From Styela clava (Eukaryota > Chordata > Ascidiacea > Stolidobranchia > Styelidae), in assembly GCF_964204865.1 (NCBI RefSeq), contig NC_135250.1, positions 13,144,001 through 13,208,000 of the forward strand: DNA of 64,000 nucleotides, written 5' to 3'. Shown here piece after piece: positions 4,801 through 61,600 of the stretch. Each line of letters starts with the position of its first letter. Positions within the stretch are counted from its first letter, which is position 1. The notes under the pieces were generated by a model that was not told the origin of the DNA, made no database searches, and saw only the letters and a list, made by a program, of their open reading frames with translations. A program made the position numbers and the translations under genes.

Positions 4801-6980
4801 ATGCAATCATATCTATTTTAATCGCATCATAATCGTCAATCATGTTCCGAAATAAACTCTCATAATTTTCTATGAACAATAAATTTGTTTTTAATTCAGT
4901 AACATTTAATTAGTATAGTTTTTATTGCGACTTGCAGAAAATGATTCTTTAAAATAGCAGCTAAACTACTTTGGGTTTTGGGGTCCAAGGAATGCGTTCC
5001 TCAAGTCCAACTTCCGTTTATTTATTCTCCAATTTATGCTTGTCTCAGATCAACGTGTACTTGGAGAGAGTCAGCGACAGGTTCATCAAACCACAAGTTA
5101 TTCAAATTCATTCACGAATAAAATAGAGTCCACTACACAAAAGAATAGCTCAGGTGATCTCAACTAAAATCTGAATAGCACATAATTATAATATATATAG
5201 ACATAGAGAATATTCACATATTAAAATTGAAGAGTCCAAAATTAGGCTCGCGTTGCAGGAAGTTGTGAGTGAAAGTAGAAATGTGCACGATACAAAAAAT
5301 TTGTGTAACTGATTGCTGGCCATGAGCATGTTTCGCATTGTGAAAATTGTCGCTGACAAAATTATACATTAGCATTGCTTGTCATAAATTTCTTAGTCGT
5401 AACCAACGAGTTTTATCAGGACAACTGTTTATGCCATGTTAGAAATTTTAAAAGGTAACAATCGAATTATGGTTTAATCAATTTTGTCTGCGTTTTTTAT
5501 GCATTGCCATTCATTCCCCATGGCTGGTTGCCAAAATGTAGCGTCGCCCGGAAGGAAGTGAATGCCTACCTAAAACATTTTGAGATATGACCTTTTGCGA
5601 TTCAGACATTTAAATACACGAGTTCTTACGTTATTACAATGCGATGTCAAAAAATACATTCAACTATAATTTGCAACAAGAATAGTATGATTTGATTTTA
5701 AAAATTCCTAATTAATCATTTTATTTTAAGGATTTACAAATGAAAAATTAGAAAAACAAGGAGACCTTTTCAAACCGACATTTGCAGCGATTGTATCAAT
5801 AATTGTCATTCTTGCAATACTTCTGTCTGCAACCTGCATTATGCTATTCCTTATGTATAAGAGGTAAGAAAATAGGTATTTTGGAAAATTTAAACCTGCT
5901 ACAGTTCTGTCATTGCAGAAAATATTGCACAAAAAGATATGATATTTGTAGAAAGTGAGAAGTGAGGTCAATATTTCTTGTTGAATCATATAGAACTAAT
6001 ATCAGCATTGACATAACTTCAAACATGAAGTATCCAAATTGTGATTATTAATTTTTTTTGGTATGTCTTGAATTTATACCTGACACGGGCAAACTCCGGC
6101 CCGCAGTGTAATTAAATTTAATTTTGATGTTTTAGCAAAAATATAACTCAAGGAAATTGTTGAAACTGCGATTAAATTTAGTTTCGGCACGGGGCTTATT
6201 GTTTCCCACTTTTGCTTTCGTCACACTGTGGATATCGATCATGAAATGAAACTTTTACGTCACACTTACATGGCCCGTCAGTCTAGATGGGCAAAATTTC
6301 CGTCCCCCGGTCCAAAAACCTTGCCCACCCCTGATTTATATCTTTGTGAGGTCATGAAATAAAACTCAAACAATTTTGGGTGAACTTGCTCAAATTGAAA
6401 AAGTCTTAACATTAATGTAACGTTCTGTCGGACAAAACTAAGCACTCGTATTTGTTAATTATATATCATATATGCTTGTGTACACAAAAATATTCAGAAA
6501 AGAGTCTAGAAAAGAGATATCTAGTCCTTATACGACAATGGAAATAACAAAACACGTTAGTCATTATTTCAAATGTTTTGATTTGTTCTAATTATTATTA
6601 TTTTTAGAAAAGAGAAAGCCAATACGTTTCAAAACCCCGCTGTTGTTGCATATGTGCATGATCGAACTGATGAAGATGGATTTAGTTCAACTCAAATAAC
6701 TCCTGAATATCTTGAATTTCCAACGCCGACTGGAGTTGGATCCAAATCTCCCGAAGAACCTAAAAATTTGTACGCTGAAATCGGACGAGATGCTGTTTCT
6801 TCTGATGAATTTTTTACCGTTAACGTGAGAAGTAGGCATTATGAAAACATTGATGAAACTCAGTCTAATCACACAGCATCGACGGGACATATCGATTTAG
6901 ACTTAGAGGAACTACCAACAAGTTACACATATGCTACGGTGAACAAAATTAGGAATCCACATCCCGACGTGTCACTGTGA
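1837..6980 (+). CDS. CUB-domain single-pass membrane receptor with tyrosine-motif tail
   Basis: I infer six exons: 1837-1882, 2871-3101, 3310-3537, 5049-5153, 5731-5863 and 6608-6980. All have GT-AG junctions, phases run 1,1,1,1,2, and 1116 nt give 371 residues. Exon 1 encodes a hydrophobic signal peptide. Exons 2-3 (about 16-168) encode a cysteine-rich CUB-like domain, with a C-T-W motif near its start and N-glycosylation sites such as N-S-S. Exon 4 is a Ser/Thr/Asn-rich stalk. Exon 5 has a 26-residue hydrophobic helix (about 220-245). Exon 6 is a 123-residue cytoplasmic tail with Y-L-E-F, Y-A-E-I, Y-E-N-I and Y-A-T-V. YENI fits a Grb2-type SH2 site (YxN) and YAEI a Src-family SH2 site, so phosphotyrosine signalling is likely. 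No kinase domain or canonical ITAM is present. The ligand is unknown. Introns 3 and 5 carry short hAT elements. The gene model is strong; the CUB assignment is moderate. Confidence 0.82.
3806..4141. mobile_element. Non-autonomous hAT-type element in CUB receptor intron 3
   Basis: The element begins CAGGGGTGTGCAACC and ends with its near-inverse, AGGTTGAACACCCCTG. It contains the 'gggccagatagaaata' and 'gcccacgagccgcagg' blocks shared with the copies at 21872-22180 and 54530-54843. The flanking 8-mers are only partly alike, so the insertion is old. It has no transposase. Confidence 0.75.
6080..6333. mobile_element. Short hAT-type element in CUB receptor intron 5
   Basis: The left end has GGGCAAACTCCGGCCCGC and the right end TTGCCCACCCCTG, the usual ends of this hAT-related class. 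The flanks ATTTATAC and ATTTATAT match at 7 of 8 positions, consistent with an aged 8-bp target duplication. It is about 254 bp long with no coding capacity. Confidence 0.7.
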
Positions 6981-16550: not shown

Positions 16551-17913
16551 TTATTTTTTAGCTGTTCTTTCTATCATTATAGGCATTACGCAAGTGCAGC
16601 CAGTAACGACCGTGTATCTTGCGATTGTGCCATTGTAGTAGTAGACATTTATGTCAGCTGTGACTTCTTTTGATACCAAACTCAAATTCTCTCTTCTTGT
16701 CTTTATATCAATGCACCCTTTACAAAGGCATCGATATTGAAAGATCTTCTTGGGAAACCTAGAAGTATTACCGACTGATTGATACTTTGATATTTATGAC
16801 AATATATTCTTTGTAACAAATGTCATTATTTTTACCATAGTCGCAACGATTTGGTAGTCGTCTTCAACTGACTTCCTACATGAGTACAAAATGAATAATC
16901 TCGTATTTCACCAAGGGGGCGTTAGAGAGCTGACTAGTTGGTCAGTCGAAGTCTGGAAGACCACCGTACGTACCGGCACTGTGAAAGATTAGATACCTGT
17001 ACCACCCGTACTACTTCGTTTTGGCTTTCGTGTCCATATATTTGAGCATGGCTCTCTTCTCTGCATTATCGCATAACGGCCAATCCCAATGCTCGACATC
17101 AGTGCAATTTGGAAAATCAAATTACGATTTCAACGTGAGGTGAGTGAACAAAGAATAAACTTAACTACCCGCTGATCAAAAAACTCAATCTCATTTTAGC
17201 ATATTTGGATGGTACGCTGTGGTATTATCGTTAGTATGTAGTTGTCTATTTTACATCTATATTACATCTACTGTTGATCAAGCCATAGTTATTGAAATTC
17301 GGTATTTATCCAATTACAGTCTATTGAACTCGGGTGTGAAAAATCAGTAGATTATACCAAGTTGAAAAAATTACTGTCAGTACGCATATAATGATAATGT
17401 TTAATATACTTCAGATGATTCATTTACAAGAAAATTGACCAACCTCATGGGGTCGTAGTCCAGTACAATGTCATATGGAGAAATACTTCTTGCTCCATTA
17501 ACGTTCTCATGTTCTACTAAGTATTTTTCCGTCATTTCTGGGCATGTTTTTTCGGAATATTCTCCCATCACTTGCTGTTTTTCGGCGTACGTTATATTAA
17601 GACCAATACCCGTTGTGCCCATCACATGCTGACAGTTTTGAATGAAATCGGAGCATTCTTTCCTGTAGAACACATTTGTAATTATTTATTAGCCTCTTTA
17701 TACGACGAGAATGAAAAGAAAGGGAATAGCAAGGACAAAAACAATGAGTGGAAAAACGAAATAGGAAACTCACATCTTTCTTCTCACATTGTTTTGACGT
17801 ATGTTACAATATTCTTCCGATATTGCTCTATTTCGATTATGTTTCCTAGCATTGCTATGGAGTGGATAACTCGAAAGTATGACGACCAGGAGAATAATTA
17901 AAATTTGCCTCAT
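16551..17913 (-). CDS. IL-17-family secreted cytokine
   Basis: Three exons on the reverse strand, 17913-17774, 17662-17444 and 16758-16551, are all phase 2 joined and give 567 nt and 188 residues. The N-terminus is a clear signal peptide (M-R-Q-I-L-I-I-L-L-V-V). The family signature follows: a first cystine-knot-region cysteine in K-T-C-P, then R-S-I-S-P-Y, D-Y-D-P-M-R-F-P, R-C-L-C-K-G-C-I and, near the C-terminus, V-T-G-C-T-C-V-M-P. These match the IL-17 pattern RS-SPW, D-NR-P, C-C-GC, GCTCV in order and spacing; Y replaces the usual W. IL-17 proteins are secreted dimers acting on SEFIR-domain receptors in mucosal and antimicrobial responses. The splice joining exons 2 and 3 falls within the R codon of the D-P-M-R motif. 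That donor (AG then GTTGGT) is weak, but the join restores the family motif exactly. An N-I-T glycosylation site is present. It is an IL-17-family member; the subgroup is undetermined. Confidence 0.88.
16990..17060. repeat. Fragment of dispersed repeat (CCATATATTTGAGCATGGCT end), in IL-17 intron 2
   Basis: The stretch 'actacttcgttttggctttcg' followed by 'tgtccatatatttgagcatg' recurs in variant form at about 24030-24072. In reverse orientation its end recurs at about 39125-39160 and 40475-40510. It is a piece of an interspersed repeat of unknown class inside the intron. Confidence 0.55.
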
Positions 17914-22180: not shown

Positions 22181-23360
22181 ATTCAAGTCGTTAGCCATTT
22201 ATATATAGTTGAGATGTACTTGGAAAAATAAATTATTTGGTTGGAGAAATGTTAGGTAAATCTTAGACTATGCTCCCAATTATTTTAATAAATTCCAAAA
22301 CATTATAATACAATATTCTATTCATTACATAAATGAAACTTAATCAGTTTCACTTCGCGTTTAATATTATATTCTCAGAGAAATAAAAATTATTATTCTG
22401 ATGTGATGACCAAACCAAGAAAACAATTATACGCGTTAAGTAGCCGTTAGTAAACTTTTGTGCGTTAAGGTTATTAAGGTTCATTATTTTAATAATTCCT
22501 GAGATGACTGCTTGTAACATATTACGCAGAGAATACCTGTTTCAGTAAGTGTTTATACGCACTAACTGCGTCATATTTGGCATAAATTTTTGACAAATAC
22601 TTTGAATTGTTGCATTCGGGTACAATATGAAAATTAAAAACGATATGATGTATTCAAATTAAAGAGTTAAAACAGTTCTACTACAGTTTTTCATTGTGTA
22701 AATTAACGACTATATATTCAAAACACGTAATTTCTTCTTTTTTAATACTTATTTTTATATTTTGCAATAACTCAAAAATCAATTCTAAAGATAGAAGATT
22801 GAAGTGCTTTTCTTCGGCTTGTTGTTGTTTGATAAAAAAAATCGCTATTAGCGTGTAGGAAGGAAATTTAATTGCCCGTGGCGCCCACCACGTACAGATA
22901 TCTAACGAAAATCTATTTTTTTCGAATAACGTGACGATGACAAATCAAAATTTAAGTATAAATTTTGGAACAGTGCCTATTTTTTGCTTCGAGACATTGT
23001 TATAAATCGAATCGTTCCGACATATAAACCATTCGTGGCGAGTTGCAATACTGCTCGGACGATGAAAAAATTTTTTTTTTGCTTTGATGCTTCGGTGAGC
23101 GATTCTTGACAATTCCTTCGCCTTGCATTATATACTGTCGAAGAAACAAGAAGAATATCGTATAAGCCGTTTGTGAATAGGCATATACATCATGTTAGTC
23201 TTAAGTATTATTACCACTATTTCTGTGTGAGCGTAAAATGAACGAAACATATATAAAGTGATACAATAAAATTTGTGCAGTCTCCACAAAAAAACATTTG
23301 TAATATATGATATTTTTTGTTTCTTAATTACAGACAATTAAAATAAATATCACCTACATC
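22181..23360. other. Upstream region of the EGF-repeat gene
   Basis: No exon seen. A pyrimidine-rich tract ending in CAG at 23331-23333 lies 27 bases before the ATG at 23361. It looks like an acceptor, so the transcript may have an untranslated first exon or a trans-spliced leader. Confidence 0.45.
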
Positions 23361-26300
23361 ATGGTTCAATACTTCACACTCGTTTTGAGTACGCTCTTCT
23401 GTGTTATTTCGTTTTCATCTGCATTTAACGGTGAGTTTTTTTTTAATTTTGTGTAAAAACTACTTTAAAAGTAGCTGAAAAATCCATTTTTCATGTATTA
23501 CATGCTGTTCACAGTTTTGCTACAATTCAAGCGCCGTATTCAATGAACTGCTAAACTATTAATTCATCTCTTATTAAAATGATTCATTACTTTGCGGAGT
23601 AAAATTATTATGCAATATATGACAGCAGGTGATAATGTAGATACTGGGGTTAAGGTATAGGAATATTTTTTGTTTTTTATTAGATACGAAGTAGACATAT
23701 GGATTGTTTCGTAGTTATGTTGTTTTTGTTGAAATTCTTCTTCATTATCTTGTTTTAATATAAAAATCCCCTTTCCCATAACTACTTGATCAATTAATTT
23801 GAAATTTTCAGGGGTTCAAGATTGCATTTTTTGCTAGATGGTTATTATTTATATTTGCATGAAAAAGTTCTGTGGAATCTATGAGTTTCGTTTTTTTTTG
23901 GTTGTCTTCAATGATGTGATCGCAATTAAAAATTGCGCATATTTTCGCGTTCGCGTTTGCGATCCGATGGTCAAGCGAGGTTGTAAAGACTGCGGTACCG
24001 ATAGTTTACTGGAACAGATTTCATACCCAAACTACTTCGTTTCGACTTTCGTACCCATATATTTGAGCATTGCTAACTTGTAGTTATCATTGTTCTGCAA
24101 GATCGAATATTTCAAGAGATGAGAGAAAATTTGTTTGCTTCAATTAATGTATAATGATATAATGAATAAATCAATATTAAATTAATCAAGTGTAATTATT
24201 GATCAAGTTTCCGAAGCTTCAATTTCCTGGTTTTTAAAAATGTGATATTACTCAATTTCTTCTACTATAACTATTGTGCTAATTCCACCTTGATTTCTAA
24301 AATTAGAATCAACTTTCTGCTTTTGTAATATTTCACATTTCAGAGGAAAATTCTTTGAATTATTATCGCACATTATTAAATTAAAGCGTCGAGGAATTTA
24401 AAAATTATTAGTTTTTTTTTCAATAATTAGAACATTTTGCAATCTTAAAATTTCATTGTTAGTATAGGAAATAATTGATATAACTCAAAATATTGAGTTG
24501 ATTTATACATTCAACAAAATAATAAAAAAAATCGTATTAGAATTTAATTGAAATAAGTTAAATTATTCTTTTCCTATTTGAATTGCATCAAATCTGTAAT
24601 TTATGAATTTCAATTCTATTTCTATTCAATACCTGCAGCAGAGTAATTTAATTGTTTTTAACGAATAAATCAATATTACCTAATTTAAAATACATGAATT
24701 TTGCAAGACAGCCAACATAATTATGTTGACATGCAATATTAAACACAATACAAGTTATTTATGAAAAAACAATTGACGTCAAAGTAATTTAGAATACAAA
24801 AGGCAAATATATTCTAGTGACGATGGGATGACAAATAGTATTTGTCATTTGTAATTTGGCATATTTAAAAAGATTTGTATTACTATTTATTTAACACTAT
24901 TATAGCCATAAATGACATAAAAAAATAACCGGAAATGTCACTAGCCAAGTAATAACAATTATAGATTGATTTCAGCTACTTATGAAAGGGCAAAGCCATT
25001 TTTTATATTATGTTTACGTGAACACAATGAATTGCGCCATTGTCGGATCTATTTCATAGGTATTCAGGTCATAATTCAATCAATAACAATTAACATGTAA
25101 GTTACATATTTTTCATTCAACAAGACGTGACCTTAACGTATTGTGATAGACTTTCACAAAAAATCATGTGATGTGACTTAAAAATATCTGACCTTATAAA
25201 AGTTTCATAGCCAATAATTTATCAAGGTACGATTTATCTCGTATGTCTCCAACAATGATATACATACGTGTTAAAAATTAACATTAACTTCCGTATTTTA
25301 TTACACCATGTGGCAAACCAGATTAATTATGAAGCCAACATGAAACAACTGCCAAATTTTGCAAACGGAAAAGAATCCATCTGCAAATTTTTCAGAAAAA
25401 TATTTTTATCGTTATCAAAATATATCGACCTTTGATTTCAGTTACACGGGGAATTTTTCTATTAGATATAGTTGATTTTACGTGAAGTTGCCATTAAAAT
25501 TTATCATATTTTTTTTCAATGGTTTCCTTGCTATATAATTGCTTTGCATAACAAGACTATTGATTATGAGGTAATCACGATTAACATTAGTGTGGTTACA
25601 TTATTTCCAGATTTCCGGACACTCCCATCTAACGGAATCCGATTAGACAACAAATTTTGAGACACTGTTACGAAATTAGATAGTAAAATGACCTATTTTT
25701 AATTTGTGCTATTAATATTAGACGCACATGACTGTGTGGGCGAAAATGCAACATCATAAAATTAAGTCACAATAATATAAAGACCACGAATGTGCGAGGC
25801 TCGGCATACAATTGCCCGTAGACAAAATGAATAAGAGAATAGTGTCATATGAATGTAAAGTATGGCTTTAACTATTTTTTACGCTCAAGTTTTTAATATT
25901 TTGAAACACTATAATGTTTTATTCGTTTTGTGGGGATTTGCTTAATATGTATATATAATCAATATTTATTTCACTATAAAAATTTGACGATATACACAAT
26001 ATTTTAACATTTGAAAAACCAACCTGATTGCTCAGCTTTGACTGACAGGTGAAAGCTCCCTCAACACCACCAAAATATATTTAATCAATATGAATTTATT
26101 AAATTTTTCGTGTTTTTCAATATCAAATTTTTTTCACAGGTGGCGTATGTTACCGACAGACTGATCGCGACACATATAAAGTATCTTGCACATGTTTTGG
26201 AAAAAAAGCAACGTGGGAGGCTTGCACGGTATTTCTATTGATAATTATTATATGCCAAAGGGCATGTGTGATTAAACAGAGTATATTATTATTATTTCCT

Positions 26301-29300
26301 TTGCGTTTAAAATATAAATGAAACTAAAAGATTTTAATCGTAAAGTTTCAATTTGAACGGAGTTTGACATTTACAAGTTCATTTGGTTAGGAATATAAAA
26401 CTTTAAAAGAGAACGTGTCACCAAAACTAGGCCATCGACGAGCTAATCATACCGCGCTCTAATTTCCTTTGTCATCAGTTTTCAACTAGACTAGACGACG
26501 AAAGGGGTTAGGAGGAAAACTATTTTCCTTACTTTTGATCATTATTATAATGCAATTGAAGATCTTGGTTTCAACAAGGTATAAATTCGTTTAAGAACAA
26601 TTAGGAAAAAAACTCTTTTCGTACGTTGAAAACTGTTGATGAAAAAGTAAGTTCAACAAACACTCTTTAGTAAATCACATGTAAAAAGAGTTGCAATTAA
26701 AAATTGAAATCATATTCCGAAAGATGTCCGATTTGACGTTTATCGCGTTTCAATTTCCTGTGTTTAATTACTTTGCTTAAATTTATTTATTTTGCGTTCA
26801 GGAAACAACCAACGAACTTAAAGTTGAACCGAATGGTAAGTAAATATTTATCATACTTTGAAATGCGTAGCAATTGTGATGAGTCATTCAGTTGATGATA
26901 AAACGTAATGAAATTTATAGGCCTTGGGATACATTGACTTGTATTTATTACAACATAATTGATTGAATTCAATTTGACTTATTCAATCCTGGGAAATAAA
27001 ATTAAATATGTTCTGAGCACATTTCATTCGGGATGGCAAAAAATATACTTTGTATATATAATTAGTTACATTTTTTTAGGTGAGATATGCTTTGAGTACT
27101 CAAATAATGAAGCTAATATGATGGGATGCCGCTGTCCATCTAAAGGACTTACTCTATACAGCGATTACAAGGTAATATTTATAGTATTTATTTATGATTT
27201 TTAAAATCGATTTCATATTTCAATTATATAATAAACTTCTATCCAATCCATTACGGCACAATATTGAAACTACTGTCAGAATAACGAATATAAAAGTGTG
27301 ACATAAAAAAAAATCATACTTCTATTGCATTATAATTGTCCATTTACAAAGGTTCTTTCAAATTATTAAAATGATTAAACTTTTTAGGCAACAACAGTCA
27401 GTCTGCAAAAGCGACCTTCTGGTGAGTTCCGTTTCATTACTTTATTCAGGTTTCTCAGAAATATTTGAAATGGAATAAATTAATGACAATTTGTAAACTT
27501 TGTTTTCCATTGTATATTATATTATCATAATCTAGATTTTAAAATATTTTCAAAGGAGGAACGTGTCTTGCTTTTTTCAATGACGTCAGAAAAAGGATGG
27601 AATGCAATTGTGACTTAGAGGGTGTAGATCCTTCTCGATTCAAGGTGAGTAATATTTGCAACGATTGGTATGCTTTATAGTAACTCGATTGCTTTTATAA
27701 GTAAACAATTCTATACTTTAATTTTCACAACAGAAGTCTACATTAGAAGTCATCACTGGCCCTCCACAAAGATCGGGTTTCTTACCCGGAGAAGCAATGG
27801 AAGGCGGGAAAGGTATAGTAACTAATTTAAAGTTTTATACCAATAACATTGTATGCCTTAACTTGTGTTATGCGGTGTTATCTAAATAACTAAAAAAGTT
27901 TAGCAAGCGAATAACTTCTCAGGAAACATACTTACTAATAAATAAATTATTATAATTATTGCACGACACATCTCTCATAATCAATCTTAGGCATTGTATA
28001 AGTATTATATCATGCATTGAGCTAAATTGAATATAATATTTATATAAATGTCATACACTGACTAAATAAATGTATACCAACATTGGAATCCAATTTTATA
28101 TCTTGTTTCAGCAACCGGACTCTGCTTTCGTGAAAAGAATAGAAACACCGGAAAACAAATTTGCATTTGCTACGGTATTGCAGCTTCAGCTTCAACTTGT
28201 GGAGTGAGTGACTTTTTTAATGGTTTTTATTGGGATTTATTTTATCAAAAACTGATTACATTACTTTCATATTTTTTGCTCAGTTGGACATCATGGAAAT
28301 GCTGCTTAAACCACCAGGTGAAATATTATTTCGTTATTTATGTTTCTGTTAACGCTAATAAATATATATACATATTATGGCGCTTTGGGAATTGAATTTT
28401 TTTCTTTGGATTATAATCATTTTAAAGTATTTCCAAGATTTTTTGAATATGAAAGTATATTTTAAACTTTTAATAAAATTAATTTGGACATCATGTTTTG
28501 AGTATTTAATATAATTCGTTTTACTCTTGATCATTTTTGTATTAAATGCAAAGTAACGCTAATAAATATATATACATATTATGGCGCTTTGGGAATTGAA
28601 TTTTTTTCTTTGGATTATAATCATTTTAAAGTATTTCCAAGATTTTTTGAATATGAAAGTATATTTTAAACTTTTAATAAAATTAATTTGGACATCATGT
28701 TTTGAGTATTTAATATAATTCGTTTTACTCTTGATCATTTTTGTATTAAATGCAAAGTAATACAATGAATGTGGTTTGCTGTTGAGCTAAATTCAGTATT
28801 TCAATTTCAGGTGGGGTATGCTTCGAGCAATCGAATTTTCTTACAAGAAAAGCAGAGTGCATTTGTCCATTGTTTGGAATTTCATTTGACAGTTGTAAGG
28901 TAGGGCATATTAATTTTGATTGTTTATTTTATTACTCACTTACCTGATATCTTTTGATGATTACAACTGATGTCTTATACCCAAACCTTCACAGAGAACA
29001 ACGCTGATTATAGGAGAGCCAATACCGCCTGCGGTTCCTACAAGAGGACCGACAATTCCAAGTATTACTGTTCGACAAAGGCCAAAGTTTGTGGTATGTA
29101 TCTAACAAATATATTCATCATTTTAGCTTCACAATTTAGACGTAAAAGGCCATCGTCTGGTACTAAGAAATAATTCATAAATTTATAACTGTGAATTTTA
29201 ATTATTCAAAAGAGCAAATTAAATTATTTTATACAGCTTGGAAATATACAATGCAATCCCGATCCATGTAAGAACAATGGGGAGTGCAATCCCGTCCCAA

Positions 29301-31742
29301 ATTCGAACGATTTCTTCTGTCGATGCCGAGAACGCTTTCATGGAAAATACTGTGAAGTGAGTATTCATTCAGCTGTAGATATTCGTAGCGGTTCAGAAAA
29401 AAAGATTAAAATATCAGTCAACGAAACAATATTTAAGAATCAATGATAGTTGTGTAAATAATAAATAATCTCAGTCAATAACATATGTGCCTAACTTTCT
29501 CATTTACAACCTTAAAATATAAATTTAGGAGACACTAGCATTTCATAGTGGGAGTTAAAATTGAAGCCAAAAGTTCTTTTCGACTTGACGGGTACTGAAA
29601 AGAACTCATTATATATATATGTTTATCGAAGTTATCTTCAAATATAAAATGGTATAGGACTTGAAACTGGGGTATTCAATATTAAGTTTTGGGAAATTTT
29701 ATATATATTTAAATAATTCAATCTATGTTTTTTAGAAATCCGATTTTCTTCTGCCAATTACTATGGTAAGTACACACATTTTATAAATTACCTTATATAT
29801 ATATAATACACTGCAGTTGAGAATTGTTCATAAAAAAGAATTCCATAAATCAACACCCAGATGCCTTGAATATAAAATAGTAACTGTTTCAAATTAATTT
29901 TATTGCGGTTTCATTTGAAAAAATCTCAAAATAGCTCAGTGTATTCAGTTGATATCTACCTGGACAGTAAGCAAGTCAAAAAAACTTGTTTACATCCAAA
30001 TAGTATGTGTTGAAAACGCTTATTTTATTTGCGTAATTACTTTATTTAACCTATGCTATTTTCAACTCTAGTACTGAAAGTTTTTACATATCCGCAATAA
30101 ATTTGTGTAATCGATTTTTAATATCAAAATGACGAGTTTAATAATAAAACTACATTATTATCACCTCAACAGAGAAATCCTTGTTTACCAAACCCATGCC
30201 GAAACCAAGGCACATGCTCAAGAGTTGTAGGATCTCAAAAGCACACTTGTACATGCAAAAGAGGATACGGTGGTGTGAAATGTGAGGTAATGATTGCAAA
30301 ATTGATACCATTGTTGTGCTCAAACATTATAGAACGTTGATAAATTTTTAGATAGATCATTTTATATTATACGACTATTATACGCGCAACGACTAATTGA
30401 ACCTTTCTTTTTAGAAAACTATTTCAACTTCACAACTATTTGCGAATGGTCGAACACTCTTCACACGGCCCAAAAAAGTAAGTTTAGCAAAACGGTTTCA
30501 AATGCTTTATGTTTTTAAATAAAATAATGATATATATGACGTGACCATTTCATTTCGAGACGCTCGGTTTAGATGCATATCAAATAGACATGTATTCCTC
30601 TACTTAAGATGCAAATCATGGTTGTAATTTTTTCTACAAATATTTCAACAATAATACATAGACCGGCCTTTTGAAATTATTATAATGATTTATTCGTATT
30701 TATTTATAATGATAACGATTTATTCGTAATTTCAGGGACAATATTTATGTTTCCCGAATCCATGCCAAAATAGTGGTATTTGCTATAGACAAAGATCAGC
30801 ACAAGGAAAATACAACAAGTTGTTTTGTAAATGTAGAAATGCATATGTTGGAGAATATTGTGAAGTAAGTCACTAAATACATCCAAAGCCAGAACGATAA
30901 CAAAATTGCCTGCTGTAAAGCATGAGCTACGTCGTATGATAATTCCCAACAAAAAATATAGTTACAACTAGAATATTTATCATAAAATTTATTACATTAT
31001 TGCAATGGTGATCTTGTGATAACAACCAAACAAGAAAGCGATCGGAGACCGCCGACTTATCGAACTAGCGGCGTGTATCCTTCGCTATGACTCAATAGTG
31101 ACACCGCGTGTCCCATCACTAATTAATTAATAACTCGCTAATTATACGAAATAATTCATCCAAAACCAATAGGCTTCTGGTCCAAGATTTGATGAATGCA
31201 GATTTGTGAGAAATTGTGTAACATTCGAAAGTGTCCAGCAGACAGAAAGACAGACAAATACCTATCAACATACTTACCGATCAAGATCGATAAGTAATAA
31301 CTTCATGACAGACAGCAAACACATAATTGTGAAACATACAGTCTACCACTTTCACACTATTGACAATAACTTGATTACCGTAAAGTTATTGAATTATTAA
31401 TAAAATGCCTTTAATACCATTTTTTCAGTTCAGAAAAAGTCTAGCAAATCCATGTAGACCTAATCCATGTAAAAATCGCGGAACGTGTGTCAGAAAAGCT
31501 GATGGCAAATACAAATGTAAATGCAAGAATAATTTCAAAGGAAAACATTGTCGTGTAAGTGTGTATTTTTTATATTACTAATTTTGTCATTTTGGCAGTG
31601 TGATTAAGCCGTAATACTTCGTTTTCAACAGGCAAGACCCGATCCATGTGTTCCCAACCCTTGTTCAAGTAAAACATTATGTGTACCACTACAAAAAGGA
31701 CATCTCTGTATCTCAACAAAACAATTGCAATCTATCGGCTGA
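23361..31742 (+). CDS. Secreted protein: five novel Cys modules plus five EGF repeats
   Basis: Eighteen exons: 23361-23430, 26140-26228, 26802-26835, 27080-27171, 27388-27421, 27556-27644, 27734-27812, 28112-28203, 28284-28317, 28811-28899, 28995-29093, 29237-29356, 29736-29765, 30173-30286, 30415-30477, 30736-30864, 31429-31554, 31632-31742. All phases agree, giving 1494 nt and 497 residues. A signal peptide (about 1-22) precedes five copies of a roughly 30-residue module, one per 89-92 bp exon (phase 1 to 0). Each has C, 12-14 residues, C-x-C, and often a fourth Cys. Linker exons (34 bp three times, 79 bp once, phase 0 to 1) separate them, mostly ending P-x-G. A proline-rich spacer (235-267) leads to EGF repeats at about 268-307, 318-355, 377-419 and 420-461 (six Cys each), and a last one (462-497) with four. 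No membrane segment is seen. It is probably an extracellular or mucus protein; function unknown. The modules faintly resemble half a fibronectin type I domain. Confidence 0.85.
23740..24083. repeat. Fragments of a dispersed repeat in intron 1 of the EGF-repeat gene
   Basis: The right part (about 24030-24072) repeats the 'aaactacttcgtttcgactt' and 'cccatatatttgagcattgc' blocks also found at 16990-17060. The boundaries are unclear. Confidence 0.45.
28350..28757. repeat. 204-bp perfect tandem duplication in an intron of the EGF-repeat gene
   Basis: The block starting TAACGCTAATAAATATAT at 28350 is repeated with a period of 204 bases from 28554, apparently without mismatch through to about 28757. 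It lies between exon 9 and exon 10 and changes no coding sequence. Confidence 0.88.
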
Positions 31743-32052: not shown

Positions 32053-32058
32053 AATAAA
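32053..32058 (+). terminator. Poly(A) signal of the EGF-repeat gene
   Basis: AATAAA lies about 310 bases after the TGA stop at 31740-31742 and is the first strong hexamer in that stretch. Confidence 0.45.
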
Positions 32059-40652: not shown

Positions 40653-41316
40653 ACTGAGTTAGCAGTCAGGCAGCATCTTACCTGTACACTGTAGGCCATA
40701 TACGGTAATTGATCACAGAACAGTTGTTCCCTTGCAAATTTTATGTTGTTTACACTTTAGGACAGATAATTGATCACAGAACAATTCTTCCCTTTCAAAT
40801 TTTATGTTGTTTCCAGTAGACTCTCATCAAAATAAACAAATATAGTAGGCTACAAGTGCTACAACGCTTGCATTACTGCACTTGTAGGACCGTGAAAGAA
40901 TAAGTTACGGTAATTTCATTGTGGTAAGACACCGGTACCGGCACCAGTACCAGTATCGTACTTACGTACTGAGCTACCAGTACCGGTTAGCAGTCAGCCA
41001 GCATCTTACCTGTACACTGTAGGCCATATACGGTAATTGATCACAGAACAGTTGTTCCCTTGCAAATTTTATGTTATTTACACTTTAGGACAGATAATTG
41101 ATCACAGAACAATTCTTCCCTTTCAAATTTTATGTTGTTTCCAGTAGACTCTCATCAAAATAAACAAATATAGTAGGCTACAAGTGCTACAACGCTTGCA
41201 TTACTGCACTGGTAGGACCGTGAAAGAATAAGTTACGGTAATTTCATTGTGGTAAGACACCGGTACCGGCACCAGTACCAGTATCGTACTTACGTACTGA
41301 GCTACCAGTACCGGTA
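40653..41316. repeat. 328-bp tandem duplication with internal sub-repeat
   Basis: 'gcatcttacctgtacactgt' at 40673 recurs at 41001, and the following roughly 300 bases are nearly identical, giving a period of 328. Inside each copy, 'aattgatcacagaacag' and 'aattgatcacagaacaa' blocks repeat at about 63-base spacing. Confidence 0.85.
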
Positions 41317-58600: not shown

Positions 58601-61600
58601 AATATAGTGAAATATAGCGTGGCACTACAGGACGGCAAATCCACCATGCACTAACAGTACGTTGTGTCGTGCTGTAAATTTTTGCGATGGTACATTAGGA
58701 GCCCATAATATTTTCTGGTGCAGTAGCTGAACTACCCCTCTATGTATTGCTCAAGTTACTTAATGTAACACTGTAAATCCATGCCAATAATGTGCATATT
58801 GTATGTGACACTACAGGACGTGACACTACAGGACATTTTTCCACTTTGGAATAGCGGCCTCTATCATCTCTTAAAATTCTGGTAATAAATCGTTAAAGGG
58901 GTGAAGAAATGTCCTACAGCACTCCAAACATTCAAACTTTATTAACTTAAATCCAGTGCGTCAATTCCATATGAAAAAACTGTACCACACAATCAAACAC
59001 TTTGTGTCAGGAATCATCACAAACTATGTCAATTATACCAAAATTTCTACATTTCAGGCCATTTTTTATAAACCATCAAAAACCTGGGTGAAATTTTAAA
59101 TTGTTCGATGAAATGAATGTAGTCCAATAAAATTCCAATGTCTTTTGGTATCGAAAATAAAAAAAAATTACTTTCACTACACTTTTTAAAAAATTGATGG
59201 AATTCAACTTTTGCTTGGAATGGCCCAGTAATTATACTGGTTATTAGGATCGGTGGCGACTCGCATGGTTCCATTACATTTGAACCCACGTACATTTGAA
59301 CCCATGACAATTGCACCTGTATGCTATTGCACTTATGGAATTTTTTTTGTTTCACGGATAGTTAAACCCATACTAACCCTAACCCATGGGTTTTAGTTAT
59401 AGATTGAACCCGTGGATATACGCATGGGTTCAAATGTACATGGGTTCAAATGTACGGTCACCGACTCGCATGCATAAATCTTCAAAAAAAAAAAAATTAA
59501 ATTGAATTTAAATTCTAATCTGTGAAATTTTTCTTTTTATCATCTTCTCAAAGGAACGAAAATTTGCTACACAAAGAATATCCATGTGGCTTTTTTACGC
59601 ATAGCAGTTTTGTACACTGCACAGCACTTCTTACCGCGTTTCCCCAAAATTTAGACAGGATTTAGATTTATTTTCTTTTGAAGAATAACACTGTTTATTT
59701 TTGGAAGAGGTCTTTTGTGTTCATTTATCAAAAATAAAATTACATTGTAGAAAATCACAAGATTTTTTACTAAACATTATATAAAAACCGACATCCATTA
59801 TTTTTATTTGTATTTCTTATACAAAAATCAAGTGACAAATATCATAATTGTGATATCACACAATCTTGAATAGTGGTGTGATCTTCACCTTACCTCAGGC
59901 CAATGAACCTTTCCTATCCCACACATTTTAAATTTATTTTAAGGGTAGGGCTTAATTAAAATCCTTTTGAAAATTCAAATTAATATCTTATTTTCAGGTC
60001 AGGTCTTATTTTCGAGGAAACACGGTAGTTTTGCAATGATTAGCCATTGCTGTCTTATGCCATAAAAAAAACAAAAGAAAATTTAATTAAAGTTAAGTGG
60101 GTCGCCATAAGCTGTGGTAATAAATAGTGGGTCCCAACTCTAAAAAGTTTGGGAACCACTGTTCCAGAGCATTCTTTTTTTCACAGGGATGGGAGGAAAC
60201 AGTAGAGTGTTCAGTTTCTAAGTTGATTCGCACTGTTCTATCCAAAGGTGGTAAAGACTCTTTCAGTGCAAGTATGCCTCCGTCTAAAACAACATTGGAG
60301 CTACCTGATGACGTCAGTAAGGTGAATTATGACATCATATGAAACTCTTTTTAGTCTTGAGTCCTTCAGTATTACAAAAGTATTTTATTGAGAAATTGAT
60401 GCTCCACTGAGCTTATTCCATAGAAGAAGTCATTTTATTTATTGAAAAATTCTTCCAAGAGTTTTTGATAATCATTGTCTATTATTTAATGGCTAACGTC
60501 TACACATACAGTGTAGGGGAAGTTCCTGCTTAAAATTTCTTTGCTAAGGTGTTTACCGAAAGCACTGCCCTCACCTAGCAATGTTGAACAAAATTATTTT
60601 AAATCAGCTGATATCATCTTTCATGAATACAAGCTTATAAATATATCATCTTTATATTCCTGCTGATTCGTGAATCTTCTACCATATATCTCTCTGCTTT
60701 TTAGTTATGGTATAAGGTATTATAGCCTTACTTTAAACAAAGTTGCTTAAACAGATCCAAAATATTTTAATATCTTCATTTTAGATCAAAAAGTACATAG
60801 GAATCTTTTTTGATCATCTTTCCAAGGGAGCAAGATTAATCCCTCAATCCAGCTCTAAAAGTATAAACAGAAATACAGGCCCAATTTCTAACAGTGAGTG
60901 ATTGTTTTATTTTTATGGAATGCATATTTGTGTTTATTTACATTTACTGACAATCGTTATCAAATGGAGATTCGAATTCTATTTTTGTAAATTTATCCAG
61001 TTTCTATAAGCAAATCAAAGGATAGTTCACCACAGCCATTGATGTCTAAAAGGGGTCAACCTCCACCCATTGCAAGAGGTGTAAGTGATGATTATTCAGC
61101 AATATTGGAAGAAGATGAATCAGCAATAATTGATGACATTATGAAGTGAGATGCAGTAGTATATATAAATTGATAATCTGATAATGTAATCTTCAATTAA
61201 TTCTAAATAATAATAGCTTGAAATTGTCTTGTAAAGTAAAATTATAATAGGTAATTTTAATTATCTAAGGCAGGCCACATCCGGCTTGCTGCAAATTTTC
61301 ATCCGGCCTGCGAGCAAGCTTTTAGATTTAGACACTTTCTTTTTTCTTGATAATGAAGAAGTCAGTAATAACGTTCGACAAATTTTTTTTAAATTGCCGA
61401 TGGTTTTCGTCAGCTCGAGGTGACTCCTCAAATCACAAATTTCCCTCAACATATATTTGTCTTGTATACTGTGGAACTATTGAGACTGTGGAACCATTGA
61501 GAAAAACGAGTTATTATTGATCATCGGCGACGAGATGCTAAAGATAAATAAAGGAGTGAATCGGCAAGCAACTTAAATCTAGAGCGCCAATATAAAATAC

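What the first reader, a model, noticed from the sequence alone, without database searches (positions are those of the whole stretch)
23361..28899. Unrecognised cysteine module encoded by a strictly alternating exon array
Exons 2, 4, 6, 8 and 10 (89-92 bp, phase 1 to 0) each encode a roughly 30-residue unit G-x-x-C ... C-x-C, often with a further Cys. Exons 3, 5 and 9 are exactly 34 bp, and exon 7 is 79 bp (phase 0 to 1); these encode 12- or 26-residue linkers, the 34-bp ones ending P-x-G. The two-exon unit has clearly been duplicated at least four times and then joined to EGF repeats. I know no named domain that fits. It faintly resembles the C-terminal half of fibronectin type I (C-x-C-x-G ... 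W-x-x-C), which is only a guess.
Basis: partly seen in the sequence, partly recalled or inferred. Interest (0 to 1): 0.72.

Follow-up and report, generated by a model that had tools for sequence, protein, structure and literature searches.

The report
Repeated cysteine hairpins before EGF repeats
An animal gene for a secreted protein carries five copies of a short cysteine-rich unit on alternating small exons in front of ordinary EGF repeats; the repeat is real, but whether it is a cut-down EGF, a cut-down fibronectin type I module or something new cannot be settled from this window alone.

Summary
An 18-exon gene (23361-31742, +) with GT-AG introns and consistent phases encodes 497 residues: signal peptide, five modules (exons 2, 4, 6, 8, 10), a linker, four EGF repeats and a partial one. 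All five modules have C-x12-C-x-C; three have a fourth Cys after nine more residues. Shuffled sequence gives 0.12 such cores in the region, at most 2 in 500 shuffles.

No Pfam family or solved structure matches significantly. Two leads tie. The only PDB sequence listed up to E 10 for the module profile is fibronectin type I (E 0.09), and a type I profile ranks exon 2 first of 2143 window segments. A profile of this gene's own EGFs ranks exon 2 next after its EGFs. Both beat Cys-preserving shuffles only weakly. Exon ends and the N-terminal flank favour EGF; C-terminal spacing and the whole-cassette test favour type I. Each family fails defining features.

I lean to degenerate EGF halves (0.38) in a secreted matrix-type protein; that role is inferred. 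No eukaryotic collection was available, and the own-genome search did not complete.

The parts
23361..23430 (+). Exon 1: start codon and signal-peptide-like segment (MVQYFTLVLSTLFCVISFSSAFN), ends in phase 1
   Evidence: signal peptide judged from the sequence, no predictor run
26140..26228 (+). Exon 2: module 1, 89 bp, phase 1->0, four Cys (12/1/9)
   Evidence: best single match to both EGF and type I profiles
26802..26835 (+). Exon 3: linker, 34 bp, phase 0->1
   Evidence: codon score not distinctive
27080..27171 (+). Exon 4: module 2, 92 bp, phase 1->0, three Cys
27388..27421 (+). Exon 5: linker, 34 bp, phase 0->1
27556..27644 (+). Exon 6: module 3, 89 bp, phase 1->0, three Cys
   Evidence: not recovered by the leave-one-out profile
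27734..27812 (+). Exon 7: longer linker, 79 bp, phase 0->1
28112..28203 (+). Exon 8: module 4, 92 bp, phase 1->0, four Cys
28284..28317 (+). Exon 9: linker, 34 bp, phase 0->1
   Evidence: codon score and donor not distinctive
28811..28899 (+). Exon 10: module 5, 89 bp, phase 1->0, four Cys
28995..29093 (+). Exon 11: proline-rich linker, 99 bp, phase 0-0
29237..29356 (+). Exon 12: EGF repeat, 120 bp, phase 0-0
29736..29765 (+). Exon 13: linker, 30 bp, phase 0-0
30173..30286 (+). Exon 14: EGF repeat, 114 bp, phase 0-0
30415..30477 (+). Exon 15: linker, 63 bp, phase 0-0
30736..30864 (+). Exon 16: EGF repeat, 129 bp, phase 0-0
31429..31554 (+). Exon 17: EGF repeat, 126 bp, phase 0-0
31632..31742 (+). 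Exon 18: partial EGF with four Cys, stop codon
   Evidence: own-EGF profile E 0.0026
32053..32058 (+). AATAAA, possible polyadenylation signal

Best explanation
Shown from the sequence: the gene encodes a protein with a signal-peptide-like start whose N-terminal part is a tandem array of a two-exon cassette. Linker and module exons are each asymmetric in phase and only in phase as a pair, so skipping one alone would shift the frame. Inferred: each module is a small disulfide-braced beta-hairpin, most likely the C3-C6 half of an EGF-type repeat that lost C1 and C2; the linker exon stands where that lost part was, and 'linker + module' (41, 42 and 41 codons for exons 5+6, 3+4, 9+10; 57 for 7+8; phase 0-0) corresponds to one EGF exon of the same gene (38-43 codons, phase 0-0). 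Inferred pairing: C3-C4 and C5-C6 in the four-Cys modules; the odd Cys of modules 2 and 3 could bridge to each other (18 Cys in the array). The outcome would be a semi-rigid, cysteine-braced spacer at the front of a secreted, basic, EGF-bearing matrix, coat or adhesion protein. That role is a guess.
For: EGF exons 12, 14, 16, 17 and module exons 2, 8, 10 end one codon after the last Cys in phase 0; exons 4 and 6 end at the equivalent place with Y or F instead of Cys. Cassette and EGF exon lengths and phases agree in 3 of 4 cassettes. Separate linker exons also occur between EGF exons (13, 15). Own-EGF profile: exon 2 is the next segment after the four EGF exons and exon 18 (E 0.11); column shuffles reach its best score in 15 and the five-module sum in 46 of 1000. 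Flank of the first module Cys fits the own EGF C3 site (18 of 2000 shuffles as good; Notch EGFs 82 of 2000; type I Trp site 358 of 2000). C3-C4 spacing 12 lies within the 9-14 of the gene's own EGFs. hhalign, own EGFs plus Notch: 2 of 150 shuffles as good. AlphaFold2 gives a hairpin between the first Cys and C-x-C, as in the EGF control.
Against: C5-C6 spacing is 9 in 3 of 3 modules, 8 in 7 of 7 EGFs. The stretch right of C-x-C fits EGF worse than 991 of 1000 shuffles (own) and 915 of 1000 (Notch). Whole cassettes against own EGFs: 122 of 600 shuffles as good; Notch 495 of 600; type I only 8 of 600. Pairwise module scores against own EGFs: 373 of 1000. A Notch EGF profile does not favour the modules (612 of 1000). 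No EGF chain appears in the PDB profile search up to E 10. Linkers carry no Cys.
Confidence: 0.38

Rival explanations
1. The modules are an independent, so far unnamed small four-Cys hairpin family; the likeness to EGF and to type I comes from the generic C...C-x-C...C hairpin.
For: No significant match in Pfam or PDB; EGF and type I tie in the shuffle tests; left and right halves point to different families; the spacing 12/1/9 matches neither family in full.
Against: Exon ends shared with the EGF exons of the same gene; the two weak family signals are above most shuffles; only five sequences from one gene were available, so lack of a match is weak evidence.
Confidence: 0.3
2. The cassette is a shortened or altered fibronectin type I module: linker in place of strands A-B, module in place of the C-D-E sheet, first Cys lost and the Trp position changed to Cys.
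For: Only PDB sequence listed for the module profile is fibronectin 8-9 FnI (E 1.1 with linkers, 0.092 without). Type I profile ranks exon 2 first of 2143 segments (E 0.065), exon 4 ninth. Shuffles as good: 28 (best) and 15 (sum) of 1000; 3 and 1 of 150 in hhalign; whole cassettes 8 of 600; right and left of C-x-C 49 and 36 of 1000. Spacing of 9 after C-x-C as in 7 of 9 type I modules. Ciona fibronectin has type I modules (PMC5006582, passages), should the species be a tunicate, which is untested.
Against: C1-C2 spacing 23-26 in 9 of 9 type I modules against 12 here; Trp site does not fit (358 of 2000); pairwise module scores 63 of 1000; exons 6, 10, 8 rank only 37, 120, 182 with the type I profile, and two EGF exons of this gene (14 and 17, ranks 33 and 39) score as well as exon 6; the PDB match covers only the stretch around C-x-C-x-G.
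Confidence: 0.25
3. The array is partly a product of gene modelling: some small exons are not in the transcript.
For: Codon scores of exons 3 and 9 and the donors of exons 2, 7, 9 are weak; no transcripts seen.
Against: Phase agreement and open frame over 18 exons; a phase 0->1 exon is needed between each phase-0 end and phase-1 start; 5 cores where shuffles give 0.118; acceptors of exons 2-10 in the top 3.1%.
Confidence: 0.05

Closest known systems
EGF-like domain (Pfam PF00008), second half C3-C6
   Same: G-x-C before the hairpin, C-x-C, a last Cys one codon before a phase-0 exon end; hairpin between C3 and C4-x-C5; present four times in the same gene
   Different: C1 and C2 absent; 9 instead of 8 residues between the last two Cys; last Cys missing in 2 of 5; poor fit right of C-x-C; an intron just before the first Cys
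Fibronectin type I module
   Same: C-x-C followed by Gly at +2 or +4 and by Cys after 9 residues; top PDB and window-scan match
   Different: 12 instead of 23-26 residues before C-x-C; no Y-x-x-G-x-x-W; exon phase and internal intron differ from the single phase 1-1 exon recalled for vertebrate type I modules (not tested here)
von Willebrand type C and fibronectin type II modules
   Same: Small Cys-rich extracellular modules
   Different: Pairwise scores at shuffle level (197 and 426 of 1000; one and two sequences used)

Membership tests
EGF-like domain | Six Cys in the order C1-C6 | tested here: not met
   Four Cys in modules 1, 4, 5 and three in modules 2, 3
EGF-like domain | Eight residues between C5 and C6 | tested here: not met
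   Nine in 3 of 3 modules; eight in 7 of 7 EGFs compared
EGF-like domain | Significant profile match | tested here: not met
   No Pfam EGF match to the array or its pieces; own-EGF profile to exon 2 at E 0.11
EGF-like domain | Disulfide pattern C1-C3, C2-C4, C5-C6 | not testable with these tools
   C1 and C2 are missing; needs protein
Fibronectin type I module | C1 about 23-26 residues before C-x-C | tested here: not met
   12 in 5 of 5 modules; 23-26 in 9 of 9 type I modules
Fibronectin type I module | Y-x-x-G-x-x-W (or Y/F) motif before the hairpin | tested here: not met
   Cys at that place; fit reached by 358 of 2000 shuffles
Fibronectin type I module | C-x-C followed by Cys after nine residues | tested here: met
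   3 of 5 modules; 7 of 9 type I modules
Fibronectin type I module | Significant profile match | tested here: not met
   No Pfam match to type I; PDB E 0.092; window scan E 0.065
Fibronectin type I module | Disulfide pattern 1-3, 2-4 | not testable with these tools
   Needs protein

The most novel reading that the evidence does not exclude
A new small extracellular domain family: a two-exon, about 41-residue cassette folding as a four-Cys hairpin plus linker, intermediate in layout between EGF and fibronectin type I, amplified at the head of an EGF-bearing secreted protein. Orthologues bridging the two families could show how such half-modules arise.
Probability: 0.3. Interest if true: 0.55.

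Novelty: new variant of a known kind. Interest (0 to 1): 0.34.

Why it matters
If the modules are half-EGFs, the gene shows EGF repeats remodelled by losing their first half while an intron splits the unit, a readable case of domain decay by exons. If they are a separate family, it is an unlisted extracellular module. Either way the impact is modest until relatives or a structure are in hand.

Full report
Observation. The window holds an 18-exon gene at 23361-31742 (+), with GT-AG introns and consistent phases, encoding 497 residues. Exon 1 encodes a signal-peptide-like segment. Exons 2, 4, 6, 8, 10 (89, 92, 89, 92, 89 bp; phase 1->0) each encode one module; exons 3, 5, 9 (34 bp) and 7 (79 bp), phase 0->1, encode linkers; exon 11 is a longer linker; exons 12, 14, 16, 17 encode EGF repeats and exon 18 a partial one with four Cys (Pfam EGF E 4.6e-19, 5 stretches); exons 13 and 15 are linker exons. 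AATAAA lies at 32053.

Is it more than chance? C-x12-C-x-C occurs in 5 of 5 modules, with a fourth Cys nine residues on in 3 of 5. The region has 5 in-frame cores against a shuffle mean of 0.118, maximum 2 of 500; the whole window has 8 against 1.95, maximum 7 of 60. Leave-one-out profiles place exons 10, 2 and 4 fifth and exon 8 sixth of 2143 segments, behind the four training modules; margins over the best non-array segment are narrow for exons 4 and 8, and exon 6 is not recovered (rank 57). Codon scores trained on exons 11-18 are unusual for seven of exons 2-10 (fractions 0.0016-0.071) but not for exons 3 and 9 (0.14, 0.39). Acceptors of exons 2-10 rank in the top 3.1% of 359 AGs; donors of exons 1-10 from the top 1.0% to the top 24.8% of 408 GTs. 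Since module exons end in phase 0 and start in phase 1, each join needs a linker exon; only the pair is in phase.

Database searches. Pfam gives nothing for the N-terminal 267 residues and only chance-level matches for two of ten pieces; phmmer against PDB gives nothing. A profile of the five modules lists one PDB sequence up to E 10, fibronectin 8-9 FnI: E 1.1 with linkers, 0.092 without, over the stretch around C-x-C-x-G. In the other direction, a profile of nine fibronectin type I modules (letters checked against PDB) ranks exon 2 first of 2143 window segments (E 0.065), exon 4 ninth, exons 6, 10, 8 at 37, 120, 182, with EGF exons 14 and 17 at 33 and 39. A profile of the gene's own four EGF exons ranks exon 2 sixth, after those exons and exon 18 (E 0.11); exon 8's segment follows lower (E 5.5). 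Adding three Notch EGFs puts exon 2 seventh; Notch EGFs alone rank no module above 161st.

Shuffle controls. Non-Cys columns of the module alignment were permuted jointly, keeping Cys spacing and paralogy. Profile scores as good: type I 28 (best) and 15 (sum) of 1000; own EGF 15 and 46; own plus Notch EGF 139 and 61; Notch EGF 612 and 392. hhalign: own EGF 4, own plus Notch 2, Notch 59, type I 3, type I 7-9 1 of 150. Pairwise module scores: type I 63, own EGF 373, Notch EGF 754, type II 426, type C 197 of 1000. Whole linker + module cassettes: type I 8, own EGF 122, Notch EGF 495 of 600. By parts: around the first module Cys, own EGF C3 fits (18 of 2000; Notch 82) and the type I Trp site does not (358); right of C-x-C type I fits (49 of 1000) and EGF does not (991 and 915); left of it type I 36, own EGF 197, Notch EGF 269. 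Spacing: modules 12/1/9; type I 23-26/1/9 in 7 of 9 (the others 8 and 6); EGF 8-14/1/8 in 7 of 7. Taken together, sequence is balanced with a slight lean to type I; no p value here is strong, and several tests were run.

Function. Behind the signal segment the protein has 46 Cys (18 in the array part, 28 after it), no N-glycosylation sequon, no RGD, 74 K+R against 36 D+E, and a highest 19-residue hydropathy of 1.51 (at 179) against 1.78 in the signal segment. I infer a secreted matrix, coat or adhesion protein in which the array is a disulfide-braced spacer. Nothing here tests that role.

Limits. The species is not given. A Pfam IL-17 match and a PTHB1 C-terminal match in the window and the splicing point to an animal; I thought of a tunicate, untested. 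The collections searched hold no eukaryotic genomes, and the own-genome search did not complete in 12 attempts. Verdict: real and tidy, a variant of a known kind of modular secreted gene; the family question stays open.

Noticed in passing
window 16581-16781 (-): Exon-like open stretch matching Pfam IL17 (E 2.6e-11, above cut-off): an interleukin-17 relative near the array gene.
   Followed up: partly
window 60130-60321 (+): Open stretch matching Pfam PTHB1_CtH (E 1.1e-8, above cut-off): probably an exon of a BBS9/PTHB1 gene.
   Followed up: partly
window 28350-28757: Two identical 204-bp tandem copies inside intron 9: a very recent duplication or an assembly artefact.
   Followed up: no
window 40658-41315: Two 328-bp tandem copies, 99% matching.
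   Followed up: no
window 23332-23360: Pyrimidine-rich AG acceptor-like site 27 bases before the start codon (sequence), which would fit a 5' UTR intron or spliced-leader trans-splicing.
   Followed up: no
window 6582-6977 (+): 132-residue open stretch with several tyrosine motifs (NLYAEI, HYENI, TYATV) that looks like a receptor tail; best Pfam match is below cut-off.
   Followed up: partly
window 59277-59351 (-): Best non-array match to the module profile (E 0.03, 11.3 bits); probably chance.
   Followed up: no
window 31632-31742 (+): Exon 18 carries only four Cys in EGF-like order, so the gene ends in a front-half EGF while it may begin with back-half ones.
   Followed up: no
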